Below the pieces are notes generated by a model. That model saw only the letters and a list, made by a program, of their open reading frames with translations, was not told the origin of the DNA and did not search any database. 49,956 nt of DNA from the NCBI GenBank assembly GCA_017885605.1, contig JAFNFT010000037.1:389-50344 (forward strand), in the 5' to 3' direction. The DNA comes from Methanobacteriota archaeon. Lineage in GTDB: Archaea > Thermoplasmatota > E2 > DHVEG-1. The position numbers were made by a program, and so were the translations under genes. Below, piece after piece: positions 6,282 through 10,686 of this stretch (position 1 is the stretch's first letter; every line of letters starts with the position of its first letter).

Positions 6282-6293
6282 TTGTGTGAATAC

Positions 6294-7106
6294 ATGAACC
6301 TCAAAGAAATGTTTATAAAATTTTGGAAAAGCGAAGACAATAAAATTTCGATTATTCGTGATGTCCTTGTTGCACTTCTTGCTGTCTTAATTATTTTAAT
6401 ATTTTTATGGGGCTATACCGGCCAATGGTTCGCTGCTCCAATGGTTGCAATAGAATCTGGGAGCATGGAACATCCCAATTCACCGTTTGGTCGATTAGGA
6501 ACAATTGATGCAGGTGATATGGTTCTTGTCCAGAAAGTGACGAAGGGAAGTGATGTCATCCCCCATGGTGGTACGATTACAGGTGCAGAAGCAGAAAATG
6601 GCTGGCAAACCTATGGTGACTATGGGGACGTAATTATCTATAAACCTCTCGGACGTACAGATGTGTCGCAGATTATTCATCGATCCATGTGCTGGGTTGA
6701 TGTCTATCACATAAACGGTGTTACAACCTATACGATTGCTGATTATGGTATCTACAACACAACAAGTCTTACCATTGCTCATTTAGGATTGTACAACCGG
6801 GATCCAGGATGGACCCACTCAGGTTTTCTTACAAAAGGAGATAATAATGAGATTATAGATCAGATTACCGATATCTGTCCTGAGCCTGTTCAATTGGATT
6901 GGATATCTGGTAAGGCTCGACTTGAGATACCCTGGCTTGGAGCTATTAACCTCTTCTTTGAAGATATTCTGCATGGAAAGAATACGATTGGTAACGTTCA
7001 TCAGGATAGTTTGATTTGTCTTGGTGTCGTGATTGCGGTCCTTGTATCTATACCAATTATTCTTGATGTGTATGAGTATATGAAGAAACGCAAAAAAACG
7101 GTTTAA
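6294..7106 (+). CDS. Signal peptidase I (S26, archaeal/ER type)
   Basis: About 270 residues. A membrane anchor near residues 20-45 is followed by the catalytic serine motif IESGSMEH. A conserved block GDVIIYKP follows, then QIIHRSM with the general-base histidine used by archaeal enzymes in place of lysine, then FLTKGDNNEIID with the acidic residue. A second membrane segment lies near the C-terminus, before YMKKRKK. It removes signal peptides outside the membrane, for example from the secreted proteins in this window. ATG 6294 is preferred; an in-frame TTG at 6282 touches the nob1 stop. Between the serine and histidine, and after the histidine, there are inserts typical of archaeal forms. Confidence 0.9.
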   Translation: MNLKEMFIKFWKSEDNKISIIRDVLVALLAVLIILIFLWGYTGQWFAAPMVAIESGSMEHPNSPFGRLGTIDAGDMVLVQKVTKGSDVIPHGGTITGAEAENGWQTYGDYGDVIIYKPLGRTDVSQIIHRSMCWVDVYHINGVTTYTIADYGIYNTTSLTIAHLGLYNRDPGWTHSGFLTKGDNNEIIDQITDICPEPVQLDWISGKARLEIPWLGAINLFFEDILHGKNTIGNVHQDSLICLGVVIAVLVSIPIILDVYEYMKKRKKTV

Positions 7107-7184: not shown

Positions 7185-9914
7185 CTAAAAATGATCGATA
7201 GAATCAAACACTTGCCATTCAACAAATTCTGTACATTCAGCTATTATCTTCTGAGCGATTTTTTTCTTTAACCCTGTCTTCGTAAGGTCTTTCACGGTTG
7301 CTTGACGTAACTTCTCAACGGTGGTATATCCCGAATTACTCAGAATACCTGCGGTCTCCTGATCAATGCTATCAAATGCGACGAACGGGTCGTTTCGCTC
7401 TGTTATTTGGTTCGTTGATTTTTCCTTTATGATTTCTTCTTTCATATGAATATCCATCTTTTTCTTCGCGTTCTCTTCTTCTTTCATCTTATATTTATGC
7501 TCTTCTTTTTCCTTTTTTCTCTCTTCTTTTTGCATCTTTCGTTCAAAAACTTTCGTTTTACGAATTTCTTTTTCTTCTGCTGCTATTCTTACTAAATCCA
7601 TCGTTTGTTTCTGTTGTTCTGCTTGTTTATGTTCGTCTATTACTTCAGTGCCTTTTGCTTTTCCAAAAGAGAGTCTACTGATATGCTCTCTGTCTTTTTT
7701 CTCATCAAATTGTTTTAGTTTTTGTTCTTTTTTCTCCTTTTCTTTTGATTCCATTTCTCGTAACGCAAGGTCGCGATCTTTTCGTTTCTGTTCTTCTTTT
7801 AAAAGTCTGCGTACCTCGCGTTCCTTCTCCTTAACTTCTTTTTTCGAAGGTTTTTCATCTGATATATTCTGTTTCCATATTTCTTTGTTTGTCTTATTAG
7901 ATCCAAAAAGATTTTTACGTTGTTTTTCCTCTAACTTCTTTTGCATTTTCTGTTCTTTTTCTTTCTTTTTTAATTCCAAACGTTCCCGCAATGCTTTTTC
8001 CTTCCGTTCCTTTTCAAGACGTTTCTGTTCACGTTTTTTTTCCTTTACAATTTGTTTTTGCGTTTCTGTTGTTGTTGACGGGACCTTAGTGATAACCGAA
8101 GGGAGACTTTCAAGTTCTTTTTGTGTTACCTCATCATATGATGACCAGGGGGTAATATTTGTTTGTTCTTCTTTCTTCGTCCAAAAGCTTTTCTTAGGAG
8201 TTTTTTCTGGTTTCACCATTGCAACTGCAGGGATCTTAGCTTGACCTTTGCTTTCCTTCTTTTTACCAACTGAGGCTGCGAAAGGTGTCTTTTTTTCTTT
8301 TTTTGTCATACTGGTTTTCAATTTTTCTTTTTTCTTTTTTTGTCGCTCTAGTAGTTCCAATTGCGATTTCTCTTCCATTTCTTTTAAAAGATGTTGTTCT
8401 TCCCGTTGTTTTTCTTCTGCTTGGGCTGCGACCTGTTTCTTTTCTGTTTCTATTTGTTTTTGTTCTTCTCGTTGTTTTTGTTGTAACTCCACTGTCTCTA
8501 TTTTTAGTTTCTTTTCCTTTTCTTTTGCGAGTCGTTTGGCTTCTCTATGTTTTTCTTTTGCAATCAGTTTTGCTTTTTTCTCTTCAATCTTTTTTTGTTT
8601 GTGTCCCTCTTTTTCTTTTTTCGCCATCTCTACTTGTTCGAATCGTAGTTTCTCTTCACGTTCTTTTAAAAGACTTTGTTCCTCCTGTTCCTTTTCCTTT
8701 GATTCAACCGCAGCTTTTTTCTTCTCGAGATCCTTGCTTTTCTGGGTTTGTCGCTGCTTATGCTGGAATTCTATCCACTCTAATTTCAATTTCCGATCAT
8801 GTTCTTTTGCGAGCCGCTTTGTTTCCTGTTTTTTTTCCTTTATCTCAAGTCTTGCTTTTTTCTCCTGGATCTTTTTTTGTTTGCGGTCCTCTTTTTCCTT
8901 TTTTTGTCTCTCTACGACCTCTAATCGTGATTTTTTCTCTTTTTCTTTTTGAAGACGTTGTTCTTCCCGTTCTTTTTCTTCTGCTTGAACAAACGCTTGT
9001 TCTAGCTCCAATTCTTTTCGTTTTTGTTCTTCCTGCTGTTTTTGTTGTGACTCCACTGTCTCTATTTTTAGTTTCTTTTCCTTTTCTTTTGCGAGTCGTT
9101 TGGTTTCTTGTTCTTTTTCTTTTACTTCCTGTTTTGCTTTTTTCTCTTCGATCTTTTTTTGTTTGCGATTCTCTGGTGCTTTTTTTCGCATCTCAAATCG
9201 CATTGGTTCCTTTTTCTCAGTTGTCAGCGTTTGAAATTCAACTGGCTCAAATGAAGGTATTTCGTTTTCTTGTCGATGTGGAAATGATAAAAACCCTTTC
9301 TGCTCCTCCTTCAACGGTTCCGACTTTTGAGAAAACTCTTCACGCAGTGTCCCTTTTGTTCTACCGGAAGTTTCTGTGAAAGGAGGTTCCTTTGATACTG
9401 GCTGAAACTCAGGAAGTTCCTCCTCTGTTTTGTTCTGATTCGATGTGGATAAGAAGGATTCTTTTTTAACCTGTGATTTTTTCAATAATGTTTTTGGTTT
9501 TACTTCTGTAAATACCTTCTTTGGAACAGAAATCTTTTCAATTTCAAAGAGTGATTCTTTGGCAAAAGGGTCTTCTTTGACTGGTAAAAAATCCACCATG
9601 GCATGTTCTTTTTCTTTTTTTATGAATCGGGGTCCAAGGTCTATTTGAATTACTTTTTCGTCTTTTTTCTGGATATCCTTTTGTTTATGGATAACAACCT
9701 GCGGTTGTAGCCGCCCCGAAGCTGTTGGGAGGGAATCAGAGGAACCAACTTGTTTGTGGTCTTTAATAGAATCATCGGATAATAGTTTTCGTAAATCTTC
9801 AAGTTTTGCAGCATCGAACGAGGAGATTGTTCTTTGTTTTGGTAATGAGGCGCTATCTATTAAATCGTGCAACTTTTCAATATCTTTAACACGTGTTTTT
9901 CTCTCTCGCACCAT
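7185..9914 (-). CDS. Giant Lys/Glu-rich repeat protein with C-terminal helix-hairpin-helix
   Basis: 909 residues, no signal peptide or membrane segment. Residues 1-249 look disordered. Residues 250-531 are three tandem 94-residue repeats, each with KQKKIxEKKA, then K(E)xxxRLAKE, then EEQxLxKE. Residues about 640-840 are further K/E/R-rich helix broken by short Ser/Pro/Thr linkers. This composition suggests long coiled coils or single stable helices. The last 60 residues (SIDQETAGILSNSGYTTVEKLRQ, then GLKKKIAQKII) resemble a helix-hairpin-helix domain of the RadA/Rad51 N-terminal type, which usually binds DNA. I do not recognise the family. It could be a chromosome-organising or scaffold protein. 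The gene stands alone between convergent and same-strand neighbours. Confidence 0.85.
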   Translation of the reverse strand: MVRERKTRVKDIEKLHDLIDSASLPKQRTISSFDAAKLEDLRKLLSDDSIKDHKQVGSSDSLPTASGRLQPQVVIHKQKDIQKKDEKVIQIDLGPRFIKKEKEHAMVDFLPVKEDPFAKESLFEIEKISVPKKVFTEVKPKTLLKKSQVKKESFLSTSNQNKTEEELPEFQPVSKEPPFTETSGRTKGTLREEFSQKSEPLKEEQKGFLSFPHRQENEIPSFEPVEFQTLTTEKKEPMRFEMRKKAPENRKQKKIEEKKAKQEVKEKEQETKRLAKEKEKKLKIETVESQQKQQEEQKRKELELEQAFVQAEEKEREEQRLQKEKEKKSRLEVVERQKKEKEDRKQKKIQEKKARLEIKEKKQETKRLAKEHDRKLKLEWIEFQHKQRQTQKSKDLEKKKAAVESKEKEQEEQSLLKEREEKLRFEQVEMAKKEKEGHKQKKIEEKKAKLIAKEKHREAKRLAKEKEKKLKIETVELQQKQREEQKQIETEKKQVAAQAEEKQREEQHLLKEMEEKSQLELLERQKKKKEKLKTSMTKKEKKTPFAASVGKKKESKGQAKIPAVAMVKPEKTPKKSFWTKKEEQTNITPWSSYDEVTQKELESLPSVITKVPSTTTETQKQIVKEKKREQKRLEKERKEKALRERLELKKKEKEQKMQKKLEEKQRKNLFGSNKTNKEIWKQNISDEKPSKKEVKEKEREVRRLLKEEQKRKDRDLALREMESKEKEKKEQKLKQFDEKKDREHISRLSFGKAKGTEVIDEHKQAEQQKQTMDLVRIAAEEKEIRKTKVFERKMQKEERKKEKEEHKYKMKEEENAKKKMDIHMKEEIIKEKSTNQITERNDPFVAFDSIDQETAGILSNSGYTTVEKLRQATVKDLTKTGLKKKIAQKIIAECTEFVEWQVFDSIDHF
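8322..9167 (-). repeat. Three tandem 282-bp coding repeats
   Basis: Three consecutive 282-base (94-codon) units at about 9167-8886, 8885-8604 and 8603-8322 on the minus strand. Each encodes R/H-KQKKI-E/Q-EKKA at its start and E-x-QKK(E)K at its end. The period is exact by codon count, so the array arose by in-frame tandem duplication. Confidence 0.85.
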
Positions 9915-9999: not shown

Positions 10000-10686
10000 T
10001 CACTTGAGGGCGTAGGGAAGAGGGTCTTTCATGTTTGCCTCTTGGAACCCTTTGAGGCGCAACAGACAGGAGTCACACCGACCGCATGCTGTTGCTTCTC
10101 CCCGGTAACATGACCAGGTTTGCGAAAAAGGGACATTCAACCTCACTCCTTTCTTTACTATTTCAGCTTTTGTCAGATGCAGAAGTGGTGCTTTGATACG
10201 AACAGTTTTTCCTTCAACCCCCTGTCGTGTCGCAAGATGTGCCAGCTGCTGGAACATTTTTATGTAATCTGGTCTGCAATCGGGATAGGCTGAGTAATCG
10301 ACGGCATTTACTCCTATAAAGATGGCATCAGCATTAATGGTTTCAGCATACGCAAGAGCAAATGAAAGAAAGATCGTATTTCTTGCTGGAACATAGGTTG
10401 ATGGAATGCGTTTCCCAATATCCTTAACCGGATGATTTGTTATCTTTTGAGTCGAAGATGAAAGAAGAGAAGACCCACCAAATTTCTGAAGATCGATCGG
10501 TAGAATGATGTGGTCTTTTGCACCGACCGCTTTGCTTATTTTTTTTGCGCATGAAAGTTCTTTTGTATGTCGTTGGCCATAGCGAAACGATAACGCATAA
10601 ATGTCGTACTCTTGTTTTTTTGCGGTAAAAGCAGTCACTGCAGAATCGAGACCACCAGAGATTAAACACACTGCTTTTTTAGTCAT
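10000..10686 (-). CDS. queC: 7-cyano-7-deazaguanine synthase QueC
   Basis: 228 residues, normal for QueC. The PP-loop ATP-binding motif SGGLDS is at residues 10-15. The C-terminal zinc site has Cys193, Cys201, Cys204 and Cys207 in SCYRGEATACGRCDSC. It converts 7-carboxy-7-deazaguanine to preQ0; in archaea preQ0 feeds archaeosine in tRNA. The ATG at 10686 lies only three bases after the iscS stop, so it is the last gene of the nadA-iscS-queC operon. No other preQ0 gene (folE2, queD, queE) or tgtA is in the window. Confidence 0.96.
   Translation of the reverse strand: MTKKAVCLISGGLDSAVTAFTAKKQEYDIYALSFRYGQRHTKELSCAKKISKAVGAKDHIILPIDLQKFGGSSLLSSSTQKITNHPVKDIGKRIPSTYVPARNTIFLSFALAYAETINADAIFIGVNAVDYSAYPDCRPDYIKMFQQLAHLATRQGVEGKTVRIKAPLLHLTKAEIVKKGVRLNVPFSQTWSCYRGEATACGRCDSCLLRLKGFQEANMKDPLPYALK

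What the first reader, a model, noticed from the sequence alone, without database searches (positions are those of the whole stretch)
7185..9914. Giant Lys/Glu repeat protein with a terminal helix-hairpin-helix
A 909-residue soluble protein is built of a disordered N-terminus, three exact 94-residue repeats, a second K/E/R-rich section and a small HhH-like C-terminal domain. Long charged helices plus a DNA-binding-type tip suggest a spacer or bridge that could organise DNA, like a structural chromosome protein without an ATPase. I know no named archaeal family with this layout.
Basis: partly seen in the sequence, partly recalled or inferred. Interest (0 to 1): 0.7.

Follow-up and report, generated by a model that had tools for sequence, protein, structure and literature searches.

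The report
Archaeal long-helix HhH tether protein
A genus-specific archaeal protein carries a small helix-hairpin-helix tip on a predicted 40-nanometre charged single helix whose length changes between species in fixed repeat steps; it is probably a molecular spacer, and it appears to be a duplicated and stretched copy of an undescribed archaeal gene rather than a proven chromosome organiser.

Summary
The 909-aa ORF is on the minus strand. The repeat is three units of exactly 94 residues at aa 250-531, but the copies are only 56-71% identical. The C-terminus is a true HhH: Pfam HHH_5 1.8e-6, and an AlphaFold2 model matching archaeal RadA N-terminal HhH and NusA AR2. AlphaFold2 gives one 272-residue helix (255-526), more K/E helices, and disorder at 46-254 and 527-614. 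Charge statistics fit a single alpha-helix, not a coiled coil.

Syntenic orthologs are found only in this genus (756-1135 aa). The 94-aa unit is the unit of length change; one ortholog has a perfect 282-bp tandem duplication. The gene is absent from a basal species, was probably lost in another, and evolves under purifying selection. It is a paralog of a family-wide gene beside pyrI and rtcB that has no Pfam or NCBIfam family over its length (N-terminal profile match E 5e-20).

Best reading: a non-enzymatic tether whose disordered motif-bearing arm and HhH tip hold two partners a set distance apart. DNA bridging is possible but unproven: both hairpins lack GhG and the closest sequence matches are NusA acidic repeats, though the helix has a conserved basic face.

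The parts
7185..9914 (-). Complete gene, 909 aa, the SAH-HhH protein
   Evidence: ortholog alignment; dN/dS below 1 wherever calculable
9780..9881 (-). N-terminal helical pair (aa 12-45), homologous to the N-terminus of the pyrI-rtcB HhH paralog
   Evidence: AF2 (low to moderate confidence); hhalign 99.2%, E 5e-20 over 194 columns
9153..9779 (-). Disordered arm (aa 46-254) with short conserved motifs
   Evidence: pLDDT mostly below 50; conserved motifs
9531..9572 (-). Conserved short motif DPFAKESLFEIEKI (aa 115-128), also in the paralog (DEELFEVEKI)
9396..9416 (-). Conserved short motif LPEFQPV (aa 167-173), also in the paralog (LPEWQPV)
   Evidence: the PEFxPV DNA pattern occurs 4 times in the genome, 2 of them in these two genes
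9234..9260 (-). Related short motif IPSFEPVEF (aa 219-227)
8886..9167 (-). 94-aa repeat copy 1 (aa 250-343)
8604..8885 (-). 94-aa repeat copy 2 (aa 344-437)
8322..8603 (-). 94-aa repeat copy 3 (aa 438-531)
8337..9152 (-). Predicted continuous single alpha-helix, aa 255-526, about 408 angstrom if straight
   Evidence: AF2; i,i+4 charge-pair excess z 3.3 and no heptad periodicity; one-face charge asymmetry p 0.008
7671..8072 (-). Second K/E/R-rich helical section (aa 615-684 and 691-748)
   Evidence: AF2
7413..7634 (-). Conserved non-repetitive charged helix (aa 761-834) with VRIAAEEKExRKTKxFERK, the most conserved stretch of the rod
   Evidence: AF2
7227..7385 (-). HhH domain (aa 844-896); hairpin 1 is S849-I850-D851, hairpin 2 is G881-L882-K883
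7188..7226 (-). Conserved acidic C-terminal tail (aa 897-909, FVEWxxxDxxxHF)
10000..10686 (-). Upstream neighbour queC (named from sequence motif); fixed flank of the insertion site
6282..7106 (+). Convergent downstream neighbour, signal-peptidase-like gene (named from sequence motif); other flank of the insertion site

Best explanation
A non-enzymatic spacer or tether. Shown computationally: a motif-bearing disordered arm, a predicted single alpha-helix of about 40 nm plus further charged helices, and a conserved HhH tip with an acidic tail; it arose as a paralog of the family-wide HhH gene next to pyrI and rtcB and landed between queC and a signal peptidase gene. Inferred: the arm binds one partner through its short linear motifs, the HhH tip binds another (more likely a protein, in the manner of NusA acidic repeats or the RadA N-terminal domain, than DNA through a classical GhG hairpin), and the helix holds the two apart at a distance set by the number of 94-aa (14 nm) units.
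For: AF2 continuous helix 255-526 and HhH 852-896. SAH statistics: 59% charged, i,i+4 attraction z 3.3, no 3.5-residue hydrophobic period. HhH matches NusA AR (E 5e-10) and RadA NTD and NusA AR2 folds. In NusA, AR2 binds RNAP alpha-CTD and SuhB (PMC6614801). Strong purifying selection on HhH and tail in two pairs (omega 0.02-0.07) and constraint on the repeats (0.13-0.31). Five orthologs with a 47- or 94-aa period and ortholog lengths of 756-1135 aa. N-terminal and HhH homology to the family-wide parent.
Against: No partner is identified. AF2 rests on 5-6 sequences and cannot tell a monomeric helix from an oligomer. G004 has lost detectable repeats and G005 lacks the gene, so exact spacing is not indispensable.
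Confidence: 0.45

Rival explanations
1. DNA-binding bridge or spacer: the basic face of the helix and the HhH tip contact DNA, and the protein links or spaces DNA segments as an accessory nucleoid protein.
For: HhH fold of the RadA/Rad51 N-terminal type; conserved basic K883-K885 in hairpin 2; a significant one-face charge asymmetry in five orthologs (p 0.008 or less) and net positive charge on the whole protein (+22 to +77). Precedent: the CAF-1 KER region is a DNA-binding single alpha-helix with basic residues biased to one face (PMC10335832).
Against: No GhG in either hairpin and hairpin 2 one residue shorter than in the parent family; HhH net charge -2 to +2 with an acidic tail; closest profile is NusA AR. 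DNA binding is not a general feature of single alpha-helices: the myosin 7a one did not bind (PMC10335832). The gene is dispensable.
Confidence: 0.25
2. Lineage-specific duplicate with a tolerated low-complexity expansion: the conserved C-terminal module (aa 745-909) works, while the long repeat is a by-product of slippage and tandem duplication with little function of its own.
For: Genus-restricted, lost once; repeat length varies freely and one ortholog has a perfect 282-bp duplication; repeats absent in G004; the short C71 copy keeps only part of the rod and the HhH.
Against: Repeats are under purifying selection (omega 0.13-0.31) and the helical charge pattern is kept across five orthologs.
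Confidence: 0.2
3. Homodimeric or multimeric coiled-coil or charge-zipped filament, with basic and acidic faces of neighbouring helices pairing side by side.
For: One-face basic, opposite-face acidic repeat consensus; local heptad-range signal in aa 625-744.
Against: No heptad hydrophobic period in the repeat; 17% large hydrophobic residues only.
Confidence: 0.1

Closest known systems
HhH paralog between pyrI and rtcB in the same archaeal family (no Pfam or NCBIfam match over its length found here)
   Same: Homologous N-terminus (hhalign 99.2%, E 5e-20), shared short motifs, K-rich stretch and HhH with the same SID hairpin 1
   Different: The parent has 1-5 HhH copies, sometimes zinc ribbons, and a 60-aa C-terminal basic module that the window protein has lost; it lacks the long repeat rod
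NusA C-terminal acidic-repeat (AR1/AR2) HhH domains
   Same: Best sequence profile match (E 5e-10); AR2 among Foldseek hits
   Different: No S1/KH or RNAP-binding N-terminal domain was found in the window protein; NusA is a bacterial factor
RadA/Rad51 N-terminal HhH domain
   Same: About 1.1 angstrom over 50 residues at 34% identity to archaeal RadA
   Different: No RecA ATPase core
CAF-1 p150/Cac1 KER region (DNA-binding single alpha-helix spacer)
   Same: K/E/R-rich single helix with basic residues biased to one face, proposed spacer (PMC10335832)
   Different: Works like, not related: 128 angstrom in yeast versus about 408 predicted here; no winged helix or histone-chaperone parts
Archaeal L32e ribosomal protein with N-terminal HhH
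   Same: Related HhH found by the same searches
   Different: A ribosomal protein with a globular L32e domain and no rod
SMC proteins
   Same: Long helical rod with an end domain, by analogy only
   Different: No ATPase head and no hinge in the window protein; the genome also has a strong SMC_N match

Membership tests
HhH_5 domain family (Pfam PF14520) | Profile match above the curated cut-off | tested here: met
   28.8 bits for the full protein, 33.8 for the domain, cut-off 27
HhH_5 domain family (Pfam PF14520) | HhH fold in a structure model | tested here: met
   AF2 helices 852-896, pLDDT 85-90; RadA and NusA AR2 matches
Canonical DNA-binding HhH (GhG hairpin) | Gly-hydrophobic-Gly in the hairpin | tested here: not met
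   S-I-D and G-L-K in the window protein; no GhG in any of 9 related sequences
Stable single alpha-helix (SAH) | High charge, i,i+4 opposite-charge excess, no hydrophobic seam | tested here: met
   Own statistics; dedicated SAH predictors were not available
Stable single alpha-helix (SAH) | Monomeric stable helix in solution | not testable with these tools
   Needs CD, SAXS or SEC-MALS
SAH DNA-binding domain of the CAF-1 KER kind | Basic residues biased to one face of the helix | tested here: met
   Charge moment p 0.008 or less in five orthologs
SAH DNA-binding domain of the CAF-1 KER kind | DNA binding by the helix | not testable with these tools
   Needs EMSA
SMC or SMC-like structural chromosome proteins | ABC-type ATPase head | tested here: not met
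   No such Pfam match in the 909 aa
pyrI-rtcB HhH gene family | Homologous N-terminus | tested here: met
   hhalign E 5e-20, 194 columns
pyrI-rtcB HhH gene family | C-terminal 60-aa TGxPYLKKK module | tested here: not met
   Absent from the window protein and its orthologs
NusA | RNAP-binding N-terminal domain plus S1 and KH domains | tested here: not met
   Only the HhH region matches

The most novel reading that the evidence does not exclude
An archaeal nucleic-acid ruler: a single alpha-helix of 40 nm or more with a continuous basic face binds along DNA while the HhH tip and the motif arm recruit partners, its reach being tuned between species by adding or removing 94-aa units. That would be an archaeal analogue of the CAF-1 KER spacer built by tandem duplication.
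Probability: 0.12. Interest if true: 0.75.

Novelty: new variant of a known kind. Interest (0 to 1): 0.38.

Why it matters
Long single alpha-helices have been characterised mainly in eukaryotic proteins. This is a clear archaeal case with an end domain, natural length variants in multiples of one repeat unit, an identifiable parent gene and an empty insertion site, so birth and tuning of a molecular spacer can be followed step by step. It also exposes an undescribed family of archaeal HhH scaffold proteins with 1 to 5 HhH copies.

Tried and rejected
Chance low-complexity ORF: rejected by constraint, synteny and conserved HhH. Functional link to signalling from the C71 copy beside histidine kinase and KaiC genes: rejected as direct evidence, because the copy is a 3' piece of this gene type joined in frame after the first 27 nucleotides of a KaiC-type gene that is intact in G008. 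Downstream inverted repeat (AACCTATAGAGGTT) beside the G008, G001 and C71 copies: absent from the window locus, not followed. Other carriers of the PEFxPV motif as partners: the two remaining genome hits look like chance. Function from the 60-aa module of the parent: occurs as many small stand-alone proteins with no Pfam match, so uninformative. Coiled coil: no heptad signal in the repeat. Full-length PDB fold search gave only the HhH. A paper search for single alpha-helix together with helix-hairpin-helix gave nothing relevant.

Full report
Check of the observation. The ORF 7185-9914 is real but lies on the minus strand. Residues 250-531 are three units of exactly 94 residues; the copies are 62, 71 and 56% identical as protein, so they are regular in length, not exact in sequence. 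Identity at lag 94 is 0.59, against a maximum of 0.37 in 1000 shuffles; a 47-residue sub-period is also present. The C-terminus matches PF14520 above its cut-off. No full-length family exists in Pfam or NCBIfam.

Structure. The helix of 272 residues would be about 408 angstrom long if straight. The repeat is 59% charged, has an i,i+4 opposite-charge excess (z 3.3) and no heptad hydrophobic period, as expected for a single alpha-helix (features described in PMC5812594). In five orthologs the charges are asymmetric around the helix at 99.5-100 degrees per residue (p 0.008 or less), giving a basic and an acidic face. The alignments are shallow, so helix continuity is a prediction.

The tip. Foldseek and profile searches agree on the HhH: archaeal RadA and Rad51 N-terminal domains (about 1.1 angstrom, 34% identity) and NusA acidic repeats (profile E 5e-10; fold hits). 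Foldseek E-values are weak (0.02 or higher), as expected for a small domain; the match probabilities are 0.96-1.00. Both hairpins lack GhG (S-I-D and G-L-K), hairpin 2 is one residue shorter than in the parent family, and the domain is near neutral with an acidic tail. GhG main-chain amides have been tied to DNA binding in XPF-type domains (PMC3905867), whereas NusA AR2 binds proteins (PMC6614801). A protein-binding tip is therefore somewhat more likely, but this is inference.

Distribution and origin. Syntenic copies between queC and a signal-peptidase-like gene occur in G002, G004, G006 (frameshifted), G007 and G008, and as fragments in G001, all of the same genus. Two genus members (G003, G005) and several other genera of the family have queC beside the signal peptidase gene with nothing in between (in G009 the flank differs). 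A tree of flanking proteins puts G003 with the outgroups and G005 as sister of G008 with support 1.0, so one gain and one loss is the simplest history. The N-terminus is homologous to a gene between pyrI and rtcB found across the family (hhalign 99.2%, E 5e-20), which has 1-5 HhH copies and a C-terminal basic module that the window protein has lost. A related class-level protein without an HhH, L146:2580-3119, shares the LPEW motif and the module. Titles of related public records name Euryarchaeota archaeon UBA33, a Thermoplasmata archaeon and a Lake Pavin sediment MAG.

Repeat dynamics. The 94-residue period recurs in G000, G002, G007 and G008 and the 47-residue period leads in G006; G002 reaches 1135 aa, and G008 has a perfect 282-bp tandem duplication. 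G004 keeps the composition but not the repeat. Constraint is strongest on HhH and tail (omega 0.02-0.07 against G007 and G006), intermediate on the repeats (0.13-0.31) and weakest on the middle linker (0.35-0.52); several dS values are near saturation, so these ratios are rough.

A second copy of the 3' half, in contig C71, joins the first 27 nucleotides of a KaiC-type gene to the rod and HhH in frame; the intact KaiC gene is seen in G008. Its downstream flank resembles the G008 and G001 window-type locus rather than the locus in its own genome, which suggests transfer between species.

Verdict. The best-supported mechanism is a passive spacer or tether with a motif-bearing arm and an HhH tip. 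That it is a long charged helix with an HhH end, a paralog of the pyrI-rtcB gene and under selection is well supported computationally; what it binds is not known. The DNA-organiser idea keeps about one chance in four, helped by the CAF-1 KER precedent (PMC10335832) and hurt by the non-canonical hairpins and by dispensability.

Noticed in passing
L036:3825-5276; L042:7237-8850; L045:3038-4900; L046:7516-9567; L047:6740-9634; L048:7338-9134: Family-wide HhH gene between pyrI and rtcB with 1-5 HhH copies, occasional zinc ribbons and a C-terminal TGxPYLKKK module; no Pfam or NCBIfam family found over its length, and it appears to be the parent of the window gene.
   Followed up: partly
L148:1952-2149; L146:2580-3119; L142:2586-3845: A roughly 60-aa YTLYKRE...KTGxPYLKKK module, also as many small stand-alone proteins, in 75 of 243 genomes sampled across the phylum; the copy tested has no Pfam or NCBIfam match.
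   Followed up: partly
L035:4663-5856 and L044:4544-5467: Chimeric gene: the first 27 nt of a KaiC-type gene fused in frame to the rod and HhH of the window gene type; the KaiC gene is intact in G008 (L131:5741-6667).
   Followed up: yes
L040:8136-10589: Ortholog with a perfect 282-bp tandem duplication, that is one 94-aa unit.
   Followed up: yes
L041:9564-12417: Ortholog in G006 split by a frameshift (573 and 400 aa ORFs), real or an assembly error.
   Followed up: no
L046:7516-9567: In G009 the pyrI-rtcB HhH gene appears joined at its 5' end to transposase-like sequence through a masked stretch.
   Followed up: no
L035:873-10449: Cluster with a histidine kinase, response regulator, KaiC-PAS-kinase and four small KaiC-like (DUF7504/DUF7090-type) proteins.
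   Followed up: partly
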